This document shows, one piece after another, positions 39,923-45,668 of a stretch of DNA of 57,258 nucleotides (position 1 is its first letter; each line of letters opens with the position of its first letter). Position numbers and translations under genes: made by a program. Source of the DNA: an uncultured Pseudomonas sp. (GTDB lineage Bacteria; Pseudomonadota; Gammaproteobacteria; Pseudomonadales; Pseudomonadaceae); NCBI RefSeq assembly GCF_946886105.1, contig NZ_CAMPHV010000036.1:1-57258 (forward strand). The letters are read 5' to 3'. Below the pieces are notes generated by a model. The model worked only from the letters and a program-made list of their open reading frames with translations, was not told the DNA's origin and ran no database searches.

Positions 39923-40840
39923 ATGCGACGGCAATTCGACGATGTACTGTTGGGCAGCATCGAGCTGTTCTGCCTGGCGGCGGAGATCGGCAGCTTTACC
40001 GGCGCGGCCCTGGCGGCCGGCGTCACCCCGGCGGCGGTAAGCCGTTCGGTCTCGCGCCTGGAGGCGCGGCTTGGCGTGCGCCTGTTCGTGCGCACCACCC
40101 GCAGCATCCGCCTGACCGAAGGCGGGCAGGCCTACCACCAGCAATGCCGTGGCGCGTTGAACCAGATGCTCGACGCCGAGCGCGAGTTGATGGGCCAGCA
40201 ACAGGCGCCTTCCGGCACTCTGCGCATCAGCATCCCCACCACTTACGGGCACCACCGGATACTGCCGCTGCTGCCCGAATTCCGCCGCCAGTACCCGCAG
40301 GTGCGGGTGGACATCCACTTGGGTAATCGCAATATCGACTTCGTCGACGAAGGCTACGACATGGCCATCCGCGTGCGCGCGCAACCGGATTCCAGCCTGA
40401 TCGCCCGCCACCTGGAAGACGCCGCCCTGGTCGTGGTGGCGACCCCCGATTACCTGGCGCGCGCCGGCACCCCGCAGACCCTCGACGACCTGGCGCAGCA
40501 CGAATGCATTCAGTTCGAACTGCCCAGCAGCGGCCGGCGCATCGCCTGGCTGTTCAATGACCAAGGCCGCCCCTGCGAACTCCTCACCGAGGGCGCCTAC
40601 CTCTGCTCCGACGAAGTACTCGGCGGCGTAACCCTGGCCAAACACGGCGCCGGCCTGTTCCAGGCCTACCGCTTTACCATCGAACGGGAACTGGCCGAAG
40701 GCTCACTGGTGGAAGTGCTACAACCCTACGCCGGCCGCTCGCGGCCGTTTACCTTGCTCTATCCCCATGGGCGGCATATGCCGTTGAGGTTAAGAGCGTT
40801 TATTGATTTTTTGCTGGAGAGGCAGAGGGGGTGGGCTTGA
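39923..40840 (+). CDS. LysR-family regulator divergent from the SDR gene
   Basis: 305 aa with N-terminal HTH (about residues 10-66: LAAEIGSFTGAALAAGVTPAAVSRSVSRLEARLG) and a substrate-binding-like effector domain. It is of the CrgA/AaeR-like subgroup by its VRLFVRTTRSIRLTE linker. The 113-bp intergenic region with the SDR gene should contain its binding site. It is the last GC-rich gene before the AT-rich island. Confidence 0.9.
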   Translation: MRRQFDDVLLGSIELFCLAAEIGSFTGAALAAGVTPAAVSRSVSRLEARLGVRLFVRTTRSIRLTEGGQAYHQQCRGALNQMLDAERELMGQQQAPSGTLRISIPTTYGHHRILPLLPEFRRQYPQVRVDIHLGNRNIDFVDEGYDMAIRVRAQPDSSLIARHLEDAALVVVATPDYLARAGTPQTLDDLAQHECIQFELPSSGRRIAWLFNDQGRPCELLTEGAYLCSDEVLGGVTLAKHGAGLFQAYRFTIERELAEGSLVEVLQPYAGRSRPFTLLYPHGRHMPLRLRAFIDFLLERQRGWA

Positions 40841-40947
40841 AGGTGGATTATGTAGGTGGGTCGGGGGGCTGGATTGGGTGTGTGGCCGGTTGTTCGGCAG
40901 TGTTGGTGGGTGATGCTCGTACCATCGATATCGTGGACGGCCCCCGC

Positions 40948-40976
40948 TTGTTACTTTGTAGTCACTGATGTCATAT
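40948..40976 (+). promoter_or_regulatory. Possible promoter of the RT island
   Basis: TTGTTA (40948-40953), 17 bp, then TCATAT (40971-40976). It is weak at the -10. It overlaps an 8-bp inverted repeat TGATGTCA-TAT-TGACATCA (40966-40984) that could be an operator. Transcription would begin just before TTTTAGC at 40986. Confidence 0.35.
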
Positions 40977-40982
40977 TGACAT

Positions 40983-41260
40983 CACTTTTAGCTTAATGGT
41001 AGAAGGTTACTGTGCTGGGTGTACTTACCCAGATGCTCTTTAACTTTAGTGAGAAATGGGCTTGCAGTCTGTGATCGGTTAATTCTGATCAGTTTTGGTG
41101 TTCTCCAAAGCTTCTTCCGCCCAACCGTTGCGAGGTGATCCGGTCACCGTGCGCTCCGTGTCTGCGTGTATTGCTCGGTGCTGGCGTTTGGTGTGCTTGG
41201 TACCAAGCTTTACGGCGGAGGGCTTTATCAAACAAGTTTGATAAAGCCAGAACTGTAGTT
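40983..41260 (+). ncRNA. Candidate retron-type msr-msd RNA upstream of the RT genes
   Basis: Non-coding, highly foldable stretch leading into two retron-type RT genes. From 5' end: TTTTAGC (40986-40992; retron branching G lies in such an AGC); hairpin CTGGGT/ACCCAG (41015-41032); TTTGG/CCAAA (41094-41108). Then a long-range stem AAAGC..TCCGCC (41107-41120) with GGCGGA..GCTTT (41215-41225). It encloses GGTGA/TCACC and the palindrome GCTTGGTACCAAGC (41195-41208). Last is the 13-bp perfect hairpin at 41221-41248, whose first bases overlap the long-range stem, so the two would be alternative pairings. No clear a1/a2 pair was found, so the limits are uncertain and the retron reading is inference. 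Confidence 0.42.
41221..41248 (+). repeat. Perfect 13-bp hairpin before the 77-aa gene
   Basis: GGCTTTATCAAAC, then AA, then the exact complement GTTTGATAAAGCC. No T-run follows, so it is not a simple terminator. It lies 90 bp before the 77-aa gene, in the position where retron msd stems or phage-type operators occur. Confidence 0.7.
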
Positions 41261-41337
41261 TGTAGAGGCATCTTCATAGTTCCTTTCGGCCCAGGCTGCT
41301 TGACGGCGAGGCAATCCCGCCCGATAGGAGTTTCACT

Positions 41338-41571
41338 ATGAGTAAGTTAAAGAAGTCGCGTGGCCGAAAGGCCATGTCGGTGAAGCATAAAAATGAAGAT
41401 GCCCGTGTTATTGTAACTAGCAGCAACAATCCTAATCCTGTATGGGTGAAGGTGAAAGGCGCCCTTAAGTGGGTAGCTAAATGTTTTGTTCGTTACTCGG
41501 CTAGACTAGGGCTTATAGCCCTCTGGGATAACCGTGAAGCTATCCTGGCTGTATTTGGGATAGAGTTATGA
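41338..41571 (+). CDS. 77-aa basic protein of unknown function in the RT island
   Basis: Starts ATG after a good ATAGGAGTTTCACT ribosome site. The first 22 residues are very basic (MSKLKKSRGRKAMSVKHKNE). The rest contains an amphipathic or weakly hydrophobic helix (VKGALKWVAKCFVRYSARLGLIALW) and a hydrophobic tail (ILAVFGIEL). AT-rich codon use matches the two RT genes. It precedes RT1 by 76 bp and likely shares its transcript. It could be an accessory nucleic-acid-binding protein, a membrane-active toxin or an inhibitor; no family recognised. Confidence 0.65.
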   Translation: MSKLKKSRGRKAMSVKHKNEDARVIVTSSNNPNPVWVKVKGALKWVAKCFVRYSARLGLIALWDNREAILAVFGIEL

Positions 41572-41600
41572 CACAACAAACTACATCATTCGAATTCTGG

Positions 41601-41628
41601 AATAGGGCTGTCAATTTTTAGCCCTATT
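41601..41628 (+). promoter_or_regulatory. Hairpin in the leader of RT1
   Basis: AATAGGGCT and AGCCCTATT form a perfect 9-bp stem around a 10-base loop, followed by TATTTG and then the RT1 ribosome site AAGGA. It may attenuate transcription or end the upstream RNA. Confidence 0.5.
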
Positions 41629-41647
41629 TATTTGTAAGGATTTTCAA

Positions 41648-42640
41648 ATGGAATTGGCTCATTATCCTTGTTCTCCTATATACAGTATCAAAGCTCTTTC
41701 ACTGATGCTTGGTGAGCAAACTTCAGATATTGAGCGGGTCGCGTTAAAATCCAGTGGGCTTTATCGCTCGGTTCCTCAGCTTAAAAAAAATGGCGAGCCT
41801 CGCGAGACATACGACGCTTATGAACCGCTTAAAAAGATCCAAAAAAAAATTGCCACTCGTATATTGAATCGTATCTCTTATCCCCATTATCTTCATGGTG
41901 GTATTAGAGATAAAAATTCGCCTAGAAGTATTTATAGTAACTCTCAAGTGCATTTAGGCAATTCTTTTATTCTCCTTTTGGATGTTGAGAACTTCTATCC
42001 CTCCATTACGTCTGGGCATGTAAAAACCATTTTTAAAGATTTCCTCGGTTTTAGTGATAAAGTTTCCTTTTTGTTGTCTGAATTGCTTACCAAAGATGGA
42101 AAGGTTCCGCAGGGTGCTTGTACTAGCAGTCATTTGGCTAACTTGGCTTTCTGGGATGTAGAGCCCAAGATTTACTCTTATCTGAGTGAGTTGGGTTTTT
42201 CTTATTCGCGTTTTGCTGATGATATTACTATTTCCTCTAAACATGAGGCGGATGCTCGCACTATCACCAATATCGTTTCCAAGGTTATAGGCATGCTTGC
42301 GTCTAAAGGATGTAAGCTTAAACGCAGCAAATTTCATGTTCGTCGCCGTGGTCAATCCCTGCGCCTGAAGGATAAAACTGTTCCCCTTACGGTTACTGGG
42401 TTGTCAATTTTTAATACCAATCGAGCTAGTATTACTCAGGCAGATCGTAACTCAATACGTTCTTCTGTGAAGAAATTGGAGGTCTTAGCTCACTCAGGTT
42501 GCGAATGGTCGATATTGGAGAAAGTCTATAATAAAACCATGGGGCAAGTAGGTCGTTTGATTGCTTGTCATCATTTAGAAGGCGCTCGTTTGAAAAGCAG
42601 GATGAGAGTTATAAAGGCTTATTATGACGGGGTGGTCTGA
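41648..42640 (+). CDS. Retron-type reverse transcriptase (RT1)
   Basis: 330-aa reverse transcriptase. Motif order: NSQVH (98-102, the retron NAxxH position), catalytic Asp112 in LLDVENFYPSI, PQGACTSS (154-161) and FADD (189-192, the usual YADD with Phe for Tyr). VTG is at 249-251 in TVTGLSIF and a basic thumb follows. The NAxxH and VTG motifs mark retron RTs and are absent from group II intron and DGR RTs. No extra domain is present. The start follows TAAGGATTTTCAA. Codon use is AT-rich, so it was acquired by transfer. Probably makes msDNA from a linked RNA and acts in phage defence with RT2. Confidence 0.88.
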   Translation: MELAHYPCSPIYSIKALSLMLGEQTSDIERVALKSSGLYRSVPQLKKNGEPRETYDAYEPLKKIQKKIATRILNRISYPHYLHGGIRDKNSPRSIYSNSQVHLGNSFILLLDVENFYPSITSGHVKTIFKDFLGFSDKVSFLLSELLTKDGKVPQGACTSSHLANLAFWDVEPKIYSYLSELGFSYSRFADDITISSKHEADARTITNIVSKVIGMLASKGCKLKRSKFHVRRRGQSLRLKDKTVPLTVTGLSIFNTNRASITQADRNSIRSSVKKLEVLAHSGCEWSILEKVYNKTMGQVGRLIACHHLEGARLKSRMRVIKAYYDGVV

Positions 42641-42879
42641 ATTCAAGGGGGAGCGATACTTATGATCCGGCTCGTGCAACGCCTACATAAATATAGAAGA
42701 TTAATATTTTGAACGGTTTTTTGTATTGAAAGCGTTCTTAGCTTGGGTTACGATGACGGCGTCTCCGTCCAGGGATTAACATGGGTTGTTCTAATGCGAC
42801 CTGACTCAGCAATGTGACATGCAAAAGCGGTGGGTTGACGAGTGTTATTCGGCGGCTCGCGATGATGTAAGGTGAAACT
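42641..42879 (+). other. Non-coding gap between RT1 and RT2, possible second RT template RNA
   Basis: 239 bp without an ORF. It includes TTCTTAGCTTGGGTTAC near 42734-42750, similar to the TTTTAGCTT...GGTTAC start of the upstream candidate RNA. A hairpin GACGG-CGTCT-CCGTC (42755-42769) and CGAG/CTCG (42839-42858) follow. Gap length and structure would suit an msr-msd for RT2; no a1/a2 pair was found by eye. Confidence 0.35.
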
Positions 42880-44574
42880 ATGGACGGGGACATCTCTCTT
42901 CCCAAGCCGGTTCTGGACAGTTCCACTACGCCAGAGCTACTAGCTACTATGCTGGGTACAAGTTATGGGAAAATTAAGTATTTTTATTATGGTCGCAGTG
43001 GATCAAGAACTGCTTATTTCTATACTAAATTCGAGATTAATAAAAAAAATGGTGGGCTGAGAGAGATATATGCTCCCAATAAGCAGCTAAAGGTGCTTCA
43101 AGGTAGAATAGCCGCTCTTTTATCTAATATATATAAGCCGAAAAGTTATGTGACGGCATTTGTTCGAGGTACGTCGCTCTACGATAACGCAGTTCATCAT
43201 ACAAGAAAAACCTTTGTTTTTAATCTCGATCTAAAAGATTTTTTCCCGACGATTACCTTTGCTCGCGTTCGTGGGCTTCTAATCTCTAAGCCATACGCTT
43301 TAGATCCTTCAACAGCTTCTGTTATTGCACACTTGACGACTGTAAATGGTTATCTTCCTCAAGGTGCTCCAAGCTCTCCTGTTCTCTCTAATATGATTTG
43401 CACTTCTTTAGATCGTCAGCTGAATTCTTTGGCTAGAGTGCATCGAGCAAAATATACTAGATATGCTGATGATATTACTTTTTCATTTTATTGTCCTTTA
43501 AAGTATCTCCCTTTTGAGATTGTTAATGCTCAAGTGAGTTCGGCGAAAATTAATCATTACAAGGCTCAGGTTGGAGCTGAATTAAAGGAGATAATATCTG
43601 CAAATGGTTTTTTTGTGAACTCAGATAAAGTTCGCTTGCAGTGTAGGCATGAGCGCCAGGTTGTGACGGGTCTGATTGTTAATAAAAAAGTTAATGTTGA
43701 TAGGCGCTATATTAGAAAGACTAGTGCGATGATTCATTCAATACAATCACTTGGTATTGAAGGTGCTAGATCTTTAAATCGGATTATTAATCCTTCTAAA
43801 GAAAATCCTGAAGAAGCAGCGTTTGAACTAGAGCCGCATGTTCAGGGGCGCTTACTTTTTATTAAACAAATAAAAGGTGAGTCTTCACCTGTATATCGGA
43901 ATATGGCTATACGATTCAATGCATTGTCCGAGGAGTATAAAGTTCCACTGTCGTCCGCTGAGACACAAGGCGCTATCAATCTAAATGCTAGTGTCGTTGA
44001 AAAATGCTGGGTTCTTGAAGTCGACGAAACCATTTCTCAAGGTACTGGATTTATCATTGAGGGCGGAATTATGGTTACATGTGCTCATGTTGTGGCCTCT
44101 AAGGATGATCCTGCCAAGCATGTTGAGTCATGTATAGCATTTCGTGTGAGAAGTAAATCTGAAAAACATCGTGCAGTTGTGGTGCATTATGATCTACACA
44201 GAGATATAGCCTTGTTGAAAATTGATTCCGATACTCATAAATTCCCATTTTTTCGAGTAGAAGAAAAAATACCACTCAGGCAGAACGATAAGATTTCTAT
44301 CTATGGATTTCCCGATTATAAGCCTGCATCTACATCAGTTGGCTGTGTTTGGGCTCGTATCGTTAATAGTTTTGTTGCATCTGTAGTAACTTATTATGAA
44401 GTGGACAAGGTTCTCTACTCGGGTAATAGCGGTGGGCCAGTTTTGAACTCAAATCATCATGTTGTTGGCATAGCCGCCAGAGGTGCTGTTGATGGGCACG
44501 AACTCAATGCTTTTTTATGTAAATCTGAGCTGGAGAAGGTCATTGCGGCTTACAATGCTCTTCATGGTGACTGA
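42880..44574 (+). CDS. Retron-type reverse transcriptase fused to a trypsin-like serine protease (RT2)
   Basis: 564 aa in two halves. Residues about 1-340 are an RT: NAVHH (103-107, retron NAxxH), catalytic Asp117 in FNLDLKDFFPTI, PQGAPSSP (160-167), YADD (195-198) and VTGLIVN (262-268). Residues about 372-562 are a chymotrypsin-fold protease with a full triad: His403 (VTCAHVV), Asp442 (HRDIALLKI) and Ser517 (SGNSGGP). RT-trypsin fusions have been noted in retron surveys. Its place 239 bp behind a second RT is unusual. Model: RT product or its loss during infection releases protease activity. Start follows GTAAGGTG; AT-rich codons. Confidence 0.9.
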   Translation: MDGDISLPKPVLDSSTTPELLATMLGTSYGKIKYFYYGRSGSRTAYFYTKFEINKKNGGLREIYAPNKQLKVLQGRIAALLSNIYKPKSYVTAFVRGTSLYDNAVHHTRKTFVFNLDLKDFFPTITFARVRGLLISKPYALDPSTASVIAHLTTVNGYLPQGAPSSPVLSNMICTSLDRQLNSLARVHRAKYTRYADDITFSFYCPLKYLPFEIVNAQVSSAKINHYKAQVGAELKEIISANGFFVNSDKVRLQCRHERQVVTGLIVNKKVNVDRRYIRKTSAMIHSIQSLGIEGARSLNRIINPSKENPEEAAFELEPHVQGRLLFIKQIKGESSPVYRNMAIRFNALSEEYKVPLSSAETQGAINLNASVVEKCWVLEVDETISQGTGFIIEGGIMVTCAHVVASKDDPAKHVESCIAFRVRSKSEKHRAVVVHYDLHRDIALLKIDSDTHKFPFFRVEEKIPLRQNDKISIYGFPDYKPASTSVGCVWARIVNSFVASVVTYYEVDKVLYSGNSGGPVLNSNHHVVGIAARGAVDGHELNAFLCKSELEKVIAAYNALHGD

Positions 44575-44804
44575 TCACCCAGCAACCGTACTGTTTTAAG
44601 GTAAGCGATCCATAAACCCCAACTATTGCTGATGGAGCGGGCCTGTAAGTATGAGTTTGTCTATAGGCAATTTCACGGCAGCAGTGCTTCGTAGTCCTCG
44701 ACGCTACCGGCGGCCGGCAGGCTGTAGTGAACAATCGGGAACAGATCACGATATTGATGTTGCTGACCATCCACTTCTATCCGACTTAGCCACTAAAGGC
44801 GATC
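44575..44804. other. Right edge of the RT island
   Basis: No complete gene. GGTGA/TCACC brackets the RT2 stop (44566-44579) without a T-run. From about 44640 composition rises to that of the flanking chromosome. No matching direct repeat with the left edge (40841 onward) was found, nor an integrase. Confidence 0.5.
44673..44792 (-). pseudogene. Possible 3' remnant of an unidentified gene
   Basis: A 39-codon open stretch without a start codon, reading WLSRIEVDGQQHQYRDLF and ending SVEDYEALLP, looks protein-like and GC-biased. It stops in TGA. I do not recognise it. It abuts the island, so it may be the tail of a gene cut by the island's arrival, or chance. Confidence 0.3.
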
Positions 44805-45668
44805 TCACCCCATCGGTCTAAACCCATTCGCCGCACTGCAATATTGCTGTTCCATCTGCTTGCTCCACTCTAGTCGATCCCGCGCCCAGCGTTTTTCCCA
44901 GGCCCGGCATTGCTCGCGAAAATGCACCTTGGCCGCCTTGCGGCATTCGCGGTAGTCGATCGAGCCACGGTGGTGGTTGAGGCAAACGCTGCTGCTGTCG
45001 ATGCGGTTATTCAGGGAGTGCCATTCGGCGAGGTAGGAACCGCCACCGTCCCAGCGTTCAATCCAAACTTGATCCACCTCGCGGCTGGCGCTACGCCGGG
45101 CCGGCGCGCTGCTGCGGTTGGTTTGCTCGGCTTTGTATTGGGCGAGGTATTGCGCTGAAACCATGCCGCTGCTCGGTGCCGGGCGCTGGTCGCGGGGCAG
45201 GGTGCCGTAGCGGCAGGCGATGACGTTTTCGTCGATAAGGTTGGCGGTTTCGATGCAGTCGGCCAGCGGCTTGGGCATGGCGATCGGGGCGTTGCTCAGG
45301 GTGTCGGGCTGGATCGGCTCGAAATGCTGGGGAATATGGTAGGGGTCTGCTGGTTGCCCAGGTTTCGGCCTGCTCTGGTTGATGGGTAGCAGGTCGATGG
45401 ATGGCAGGGCGATAGCGGGCGCTGCGGGGTTAAGCAGGCCGTTGCTCTTGGCCTTGAGCAGGTCGCCGAAGCCGTTGTATTCGGCCAGCAGGTAGAAGCT
45501 GAAGGCGAATACCGCGAGTACGCCGAACACATTGGCGAAGCGCCGCAGCGGATTGGCACGCGTGCGTTGGCGTCGATGCAGCCAGGTTTGCACGCTGAGC
45601 GGGGCGTCGTCGCTGTCGGCGCTGAGCGGGTCGTCGCGGCTGTCGCGTTGCCAATCCTGGTGCTTCAT
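44805..45668 (-). CDS. Single-pass membrane protein of unknown function
   Basis: 287 aa from ATG 45668 after AAGGAAAG. An N-terminal cytoplasmic part rich in Asp and Arg (about 1-43) leads to one TM segment at about 44-62 (FANVFGVLAVFAFSFYLLA). A Pro-rich linker and a periplasmic C-terminal part follow, with several Cys (CIETAN, ACRYGTL, CLNHH, YRECRKAA, REQCRAW), probably in disulfides. Normal chromosomal composition. No family recognised. Confidence 0.75.
   Translation of the reverse strand: MKHQDWQRDSRDDPLSADSDDAPLSVQTWLHRRQRTRANPLRRFANVFGVLAVFAFSFYLLAEYNGFGDLLKAKSNGLLNPAAPAIALPSIDLLPINQSRPKPGQPADPYHIPQHFEPIQPDTLSNAPIAMPKPLADCIETANLIDENVIACRYGTLPRDQRPAPSSGMVSAQYLAQYKAEQTNRSSAPARRSASREVDQVWIERWDGGGSYLAEWHSLNNRIDSSSVCLNHHRGSIDYRECRKAAKVHFREQCRAWEKRWARDRLEWSKQMEQQYCSAANGFRPMG

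What the first reader, a model, noticed from the sequence alone, without database searches (positions are those of the whole stretch)
40983..44574. Tandem retron-type reverse transcriptases, the second fused to a trypsin-like protease
Seen: two different RT genes in one AT-rich island, both with NAxxH-like and VTG motifs and intact catalytic Asp pairs. The second carries a C-terminal protease with His403, Asp442 and Ser517. A structured leader and a 77-aa gene precede them. Known: retron RTs pair with one RNA and an effector in anti-phage defence, and RT-protease fusions have been noted. Inferred: a two-RT system in which one RT may guard or modulate the other, with proteolysis as the effector output. 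I know of no characterised system with this exact layout.
Basis: partly seen in the sequence, partly recalled or inferred. Interest (0 to 1): 0.92.

Follow-up and report, generated by a model that had tools for sequence, protein, structure and literature searches.

The report
Two retron cassettes side by side
A foreign-looking stretch of Pseudomonas-like DNA holds two neighbouring retrons, probable anti-phage systems, one fused to a protein-cutting enzyme; they look like separate devices sharing an address, and their RNAs show conserved pairing with their own genes.

Summary
A 38-47% GC insert in a ~64% GC Pseudomonas-like chromosome holds RT1 (best PADLOC model RT_V, 245 bits; RT_VI 236) and RT2 (RT-Protease_XI, 560 bits). 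H403/D442/S517 are invariant in 46 aligned sequences.

The proposed two-RT system is not supported. Of 14 genomes with a type XI gene reaching through the protease, one (G294) has an RT1 relative, adjacent and in the same order. The closest RT2 (G001) has no RT1. RT2 has its own RNA directly before it. The simplest reading is two complete retrons stacked at one site.

The unexpected part is RNA-level. In the window's type XI group the closing helix of the retron RNA takes in the RT-protease start codon (83 of 83 cells paired; 6 of 11 pairs with two-sided changes). In the RT1 cassette two helices tie the leader to codons of the 77-aa gene and to the stretch after it; four viral-collection loci outside that alignment keep both. 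Function is untested.

The parts
41015..41294 (+). Leader RNA of the RT1 cassette (likely retron ncRNA): hairpins 41015-41032, 41072-41091, 41091-41112, the perfect 13-bp hairpin 41221-41248, and a tentative enclosing pairing 41056-41062 with 41288-41294 (helix A)
   Evidence: Covariation scan over 13 loci; inverted repeat I4; alignment. Helix A rests on 2 two-sided pairs (3 cells), no better than other entries in that list that are probably chance, and had no control. No Rfam match in 40800-45000. Exact RNA ends and branch G not determined.
41254..41263 (+). 5' strand of helix B, which brackets the 77-aa ORF (3' strand 41576-41585)
   Evidence: 99.4% of 160 cells paired, 3 of 10 pairs with two-sided change, slid versions at most 59%; analogous helix in 4 of 4 distant loci examined; 10 of 10 pairs in 4 of 4 viral-collection loci where the 5' motif was found
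41267..41276 (+). 5' strand of helix C, pairing with the Glu-Asp-Ala codons of the ORF's EDAR motif (3' strand 41394-41403)
   Evidence: 97.5% of 159 cells paired, 6 of 10 pairs with two-sided change, slid versions at most 49%; 10 of 10 pairs in the same 4 viral-collection loci
41338..41571 (+). 77-aa small basic protein, candidate effector of cassette 1
   Evidence: ORF; open in 17/17 close loci, dN/dS 0.24-0.76 in 11 pairs; no PADLOC or NCBIfam match, one Pfam hit below cut-off; max 19-residue hydropathy 1.28
41394..41403 (+). 3' strand of helix C, inside the ORF
41576..41585 (+). 3' strand of helix B, just after the ORF stop
41648..42640 (+). RT1, retron reverse transcriptase, type V/VI neighbourhood
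   Evidence: PADLOC RT_V 245.4 bits, RT_VI 235.8; RVT_1
42726..42754 (+). Promoter-like site, 6 nt before the type XI RNA
   Evidence: consensus scan; 10 sites found in the region against 7.9 (sd 2.7) in shuffles, so weak on its own
42761..42893 (+). Type XI retron RNA: a1 42761-42771, msr hairpin, template region, a2 42881-42891 inside the RT2 start
   Evidence: alignment A3 and alifold, pair counts, covariance model R1
42880..44574 (+). RT2, retron RT fused to a trypsin-like protease (RT-Protease_XI); protease domain about residues 388-531

Best explanation
Two complete and separate retrons lie head to tail on one acquired AT-rich insert. Cassette 1 is a structured RNA, a small basic protein and RT1 (type V-like). 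Cassette 2 is a ~131-nt RNA and an RT-trypsin fusion (type XI). Each RT most likely copies part of its own RNA into msDNA, and the RT-RNA-DNA complex holds its own effector inactive: the small protein in cassette 1, the fused protease in cassette 2. Phage damage to the msDNA or to a host target would free the effector and stop growth of the infected cell. In cassette 2 the retron RNA and the message share the start site: a2 covers the U and G of the AUG and the next codons, so a folded transcript should be a poor message, which would limit free RT-protease. Shown here: gene content, domains, triad, conserved RNA pairing, separate occurrence. Inferred: msDNA, inhibition, trigger, toxicity, translational control.
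For: PADLOC and Pfam assignments. Triad invariant in 46 sequences. Fold like Eco2 plus HtrA; Eco2 is a single-chain RT-effector held in a self-inhibited complex (PMC12405507, passages). Model R1 finds one RNA directly before RT2 in the window and in its 7 close genome loci (all 8 used to build it), and also in L099 and L060, which were not used; none in the 11 RT1-only loci searched. The nearest genomes for each RT lack the other. Different retrons using one insertion site is documented (PMC6868368, passages).
Against: G294 has the same order RT1 then RT2 on one strand, and P0028/P0144 and P0026/P0199 share longest-contig lengths 13339 and 9167 (by eye), so adjacency recurs more than random placement would give. 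R1 finds no RNA at E 0.1 in the 12 more distant type XI loci given to it. No msDNA, expression or phage data exist for this locus. The RT1 cassette's own a1/a2 is not settled.
Confidence: 0.78

Rival explanations
1. One cooperative two-RT system: RT1 or its msDNA guards or modulates RT2-protease, or the protease activates the small protein.
For: Same order and strand in G294, whose RTs are only ~51-52% identical to the window's; two further pairs hinted at by equal contig lengths 13339 and 9167 (by eye). Neither RT of the window has its nearest relative in G294, so the pairing probably arose more than once.
Against: 13 of 14 type XI genomes and 15 of 16 close RT1 genomes lack the partner. None of 97 viral-collection loci, 8 of which reach into the protease, holds both. 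G294 has a 304-aa gene between the two. G099, whose RT2 is 83-88% identical to P0028/P0026, has no RT1 hit. Equal lengths were also seen at 1970 and 2749, where the two genes with the usual gap would not fit, so equality alone proves little.
Confidence: 0.12
2. A dual-RT defence of the DRT3 kind, with two RTs making complementary DNA.
For: Two RT genes and structured RNA; DRT3 is a dual-RT system in print (PMC13174585, abstract and outline).
Against: Both RTs match retron models far better: Drt3a 36.6 and 29.5 bits against a cut-off of 200.
Confidence: 0.02
3. The adjacency is a fossil: one or both cassettes are no longer working.
For: One relative's RT1 (G038) has an internal TAG, so such genes do decay.
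Against: All three ORFs open, catalytic residues intact, RNA helices paired in the window.
Confidence: 0.06

Closest known systems
Retron type XI (PADLOC RT-Protease_XI)
   Same: RT fused to trypsin-like protease over nearly the whole length, 560 bits; an RNA just upstream
   Different: Stands beside a second retron; in this subgroup a2 of the RNA lies on the start codon, while in six distant loci (read by eye) it lies just before the called start in five and the start is unclear in one (L063)
Retron type V (PADLOC RT_V), with type VI next
   Same: RT1 best model RT_V; small ORF then RT in 17 of 17 close loci, conserved leader before it in the 13 aligned
   Different: Small ORF has no PADLOC model; type V against VI not resolved
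Retron Eco2 (Ec67), type I-C RT-Toprim
   Same: Single-chain RT-effector; nearest solved structure (3.3e-46; rank 1)
   Different: Effector is a Toprim RNase, here a serine protease
DRT3 dual-RT system
   Same: Two RTs in one system (PMC13174585, abstract)
   Different: RTs are of another family
Nuclease-protease pairs of AVAST, Lamassu, Hachiman, DRT
   Same: Trypsin-like protease fused to a defence enzyme (PMC12799240, passages)
   Different: There the protease is N-terminal and follows a nuclease gene; here it is C-terminal and the gene before it is RT1. I did not search neighbours for an MBL nuclease

Membership tests
Retron (general) | RT with xADD, NAxxH-like and VTG motifs | tested here: met
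   motif names are recalled
Retron (general) | Upstream RNA closed by a1:a2 (RT2) | tested here: met
Retron (general) | Upstream RNA closed by a1:a2 (RT1) | tested here: inconclusive
   conserved leader, but the closing helix is not settled
Retron (general) | Branched msDNA made in cells | not testable with these tools
   needs cells
Retron type XI | RT-trypsin fusion scoring best against the type XI models | tested here: met
   560 and 558 bits, next family 374
Retron type XI | Intact Ser protease triad | tested here: met
   H403/D442/S517 invariant in 46 sequences
Retron type V | RT scoring best against RT_V | tested here: inconclusive
   RT_V 245.4, RT_VI 235.8; of four relatives scanned, three best RT_V, one best RT_VI
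Retron type V | Catalogued effector partner | tested here: not met
   No PADLOC model matches the 77-aa ORF or 5 small ORFs of related loci; the type's formal definition (Mestre 2020) is recalled, paper not held
DRT3 | Drt3a-family RT | tested here: not met
   Drt3a 36.6 and 29.5 bits, cut-off 200
Obligate two-RT system | Conserved linkage of RT1 and RT2 | tested here: not met
   1 of 14 type XI genomes; 1 of 16 close RT1 genomes; none of 97 viral-collection loci

The most novel reading that the evidence does not exclude
In the RT1 cassette the retron RNA is also an RNA antitoxin. Its tail (41254-41276) can either take part in the retron fold or pair with the small protein's own message, over the Glu-Asp-Ala codons and just past the stop, so one RNA switches between reverse-transcription template and brake on a toxin message: a type I toxin-antitoxin built into a retron. 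In cassette 2 the same logic is more compact, the RNA closing helix covering the RT-protease start codon.
Probability: 0.17. Interest if true: 0.78.

Novelty: new variant of a known kind. Interest (0 to 1): 0.52.

Why it matters
I found no characterised RT-protease (type XI) retron in the search listings seen, so a compact natural example with an RNA model helps. If the paired elements work as proposed, retrons control their effectors at translation as well as by holding the protein, which would explain how a cell carries a fused protease or a small toxin safely. The helix that reaches into a coding motif also warns that the 'conserved protein motif' EDAR may be kept partly for its RNA.

Tried and rejected
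Obligate linkage of the two RTs: rejected by counts. DRT3-like system: rejected by family scores. Rfam: nothing in 40800-45000. Plasmids: 372 records match RT2 but 4 cover 80% of it, all under 60% identity; phages: 54 records, none covering 80%. The third homolog search, with the 77-aa protein, returned only the protein itself, so its relatives were taken by position beside RT1 relatives. A tiny extra ORF (MTQQTTSFEF, overlapping the stop of the 77-aa gene) was considered; helix B explains part of the conserved letters, so I do not claim it. Flank synteny: the tautomerase-like, SDR and LysR genes before the insert are kept together in the four relatives fetched, but the genes after it were not found there, so no clean empty site was shown.

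Counting rules. overlaps; only its 5 new type XI genomes are added. Searches drew largely on genomes already searched and are not added. In one search, 18 of 398 genomes matched at 1e-40; 9 matched by the RT part only and were not counted as type XI. In G001 the RT2 gene is split over two contig ends and was left so. In one search, 23 of 398 genomes matched RT1 at 1e-30; the 16 at 1e-90 or better are called close, the other 7 were dropped. One search found none in 5 genomes, and the tool warned that an empty answer alone shows little. Viral loci: the best 80 of 256 RT2-like and all 17 RT1-like were fetched.

RNA controls that do not favour the helices: the number of further pair types did not exceed shuffles for any of the three (488, 343 and 462 of 500 shuffles as high), and pairs with two-sided change were reached by 4, 4 and 8 of 500. 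Related rows can also beat shuffles without structure. In A3, G288 has gaps and a GTG start. A4 has 17 loci, 16 distinct rows. One search used 13 of 17 loci. Helix A has no control. No helix C analogue was clear in the 4 distant loci. Of the 17 viral RT1-like loci, 6 (L179-L184) were searched for the leader motif and 4 had it; L182 and L183 look alike, so they are not fully independent. On recheck helix A was marked down and the novel reading lowered from 0.20 to 0.17 for that reason.
Full report
What is there. The insert spans roughly 40950-44600 and is AT-rich. It holds, in order on the plus strand, a structured leader, a 77-aa ORF, RT1, a second structured RNA and RT2 fused to a protease. 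No tRNA was found in the window. The tautomerase-like, SDR and LysR genes before the insert are kept together in the four genomes fetched, at 75-92% identity. No whole genome is held for the window; where the closest matches are named they are Pseudomonas or Stutzerimonas.

RT2. PADLOC places it as RT-Protease_XI at 560 bits over residues 14-556. H403, D442 and S517 are invariant in 46 sequences, the 45 relatives being 40-86% identical to the window. The AlphaFold model (mean pLDDT 87.2, pTM 0.69) finds retron Eco2 first and, lower, HtrA-type proteases; sequence search of the PDB agrees. RT-protease fusions are known as a class: a survey in PMC12405507 (passages) lists protease among fused effectors.

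RT1. The best model is RT_V at 245.4 bits, with RT_VI at 235.8. Four relatives scanned split three to one, so I call it type V-like. In 17 close loci (window plus 16 genomes) a small ORF precedes the RT; the leader was aligned in 13 of them. The small ORF evolves fast but as a protein (dN/dS 0.24-0.76 in 11 pairs). It is basic at its start and partly amphipathic; the maximum 19-residue hydropathy is 0.4-1.8 across the 17, above 1.6 only in L078.

Are the two one system? In 398 genomes of the genus of G001 nine have a type XI gene matched through the protease (in G001 on two contig ends); a family sample adds five more. RT1 was sought in the same genus sample and in the five: of the 14, one has it, G294. 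There it is adjacent and in the same order, with a 304-aa gene of no Pfam family between and an integrase gene nearby. Conversely, of 16 genomes with a close RT1 (E 1e-90 or better) one has type XI. The nearest RT2 (G001, 90% over the N-terminal part) has a different gene upstream and no RT1 hit. The nearest genome for RT1 (G394, 76%) has no RT2 hit at 1e-40. Among 97 viral-collection loci, 8 reach into the protease, and none holds both. Two metagenome pairs are hinted at by equal longest-contig lengths (13339 and 9167, compared by eye), which is indirect; two other equal lengths (1970, 2749) are too short for a pair. Together this says that adjacency recurs, is not required, and probably arose more than once, because the window and G294 are not nearest relatives in either protein. 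Different retrons sharing one insertion site is documented for E. coli and Vibrio (PMC6868368, passages).

RNA of the type XI cassette. Before RT2 in eight close loci (window included) lies an RNA of about 126-140 nt. Its closing helix pairs 42761-42771 with 42881-42891. The second strand contains the U and G of the RT2 AUG and the next codons; seven of the eight have ATG there, G288 a GTG a little upstream. All 83 countable cells pair, 6 of 11 pairs show two-sided change, and sliding the strand drops pairing to at most 51% (alifold). Covariance model R1 finds one copy in each of those eight loci, in the viral-collection locus L099 and in L060 (62.7 bits), the last two not used in the model; none in the eleven RT1-only loci and none in twelve more distant type XI loci. 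L099's RNA looks the same as that of L047, so it may not be independent. In six distant type XI genome loci another pair of complementary strands sits there, the second just before the called start in five (read by eye). In 5 of 9 loci matched by the RT part only (family not tested), the script also found a helix near the called start, so nearness is common and overlap with the start codon is the special feature of this group. A promoter-like site lies 6 nt upstream, but the scan found hardly more sites than shuffles do.

RNA of the RT1 cassette. A covariation scan over 13 loci ranked first helix C, then two local hairpins, then helix B. Helix B (41254-41263 with 41576-41585) brackets the small ORF: 99.4% of 160 cells, three pairs with two-sided change, slides at most 59%. 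Helix C (41267-41276 with 41394-41403) pairs the leader with the Glu-Asp-Ala codons of the ORF's EDAR motif: 97.5% of 159 cells, six pairs with two-sided change, slides at most 49%. Four of four viral-collection loci that were not in the alignment and carry the leader motif keep both, 10 of 10 pairs each with G-U allowed. Four distant RT1 relatives carry an analogous bracket helix of different sequence but no clear helix C. A further pairing, helix A (41056-41062 with 41288-41294), would cross B and C; its support is weak (two two-sided pairs, no control). If real, it means alternative folds or trans pairing. I cannot name the branch G or the template ends.

Most likely working. By analogy with Eco2, where an RT-effector chain is held in a self-inhibited msDNA complex and a phage nuclease appears to release it (PMC12405507, passages), I infer that the RT2 complex holds the protease until phage interference. 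For cassette 1 I infer that the small basic protein is the effector. Start-site pairing in cassette 2 and helices B and C in cassette 1 suggest added control at translation. None of these steps is shown here.

Limits on novelty. The founding retron classification (Mestre 2020) and a 2024 experimental census are not held, so I cannot exclude that the type XI RNA or the small ORF was described there. Searches for retron with type XI and protease (none), with msDNA and trypsin, with serine protease, with msr-msd and start codon, and for adjacent or tandem retrons listed no characterised case as far as titles, abstracts and the passages opened show. Type names and what defines them are otherwise recalled.

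Noticed in passing
window 41254-41276, 41394-41403, 41576-41585: Leader of the RT1 cassette pairs with codons of the small ORF's EDAR motif and with the stretch after its stop; strongly covarying; purpose unknown.
   Followed up: partly
window 41586-41647; same place in the close relatives: A conserved TCATTCGAATTC-like stretch and then a hairpin of changing sequence lie between the small ORF and RT1.
   Followed up: no
L045 7179-8093: A 304-aa gene with no Pfam match and CxxC-like pairs sits between the two retrons of G294; in G001 another unassigned 330-aa gene lies before RT2.
   Followed up: partly
L045 4525-5079: A short phage-integrase-family gene lies beside the G294 double retron, suggesting a mobile island.
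   Followed up: partly
L099: A full-length type XI retron with its RNA sits in an IMG/VR contig.
   Followed up: partly
L024 / G038:C34:150740-151708: RT1 relative with one internal TAG, while its small ORF (L065) is open.
   Followed up: no
L079-L082, small ORFs of 59-61 aa: Distant RT1 relatives have a different small ORF in the same place and a different bracket helix; a GCUCUUUAA stretch after the first hairpin is shared with the close group.
   Followed up: partly
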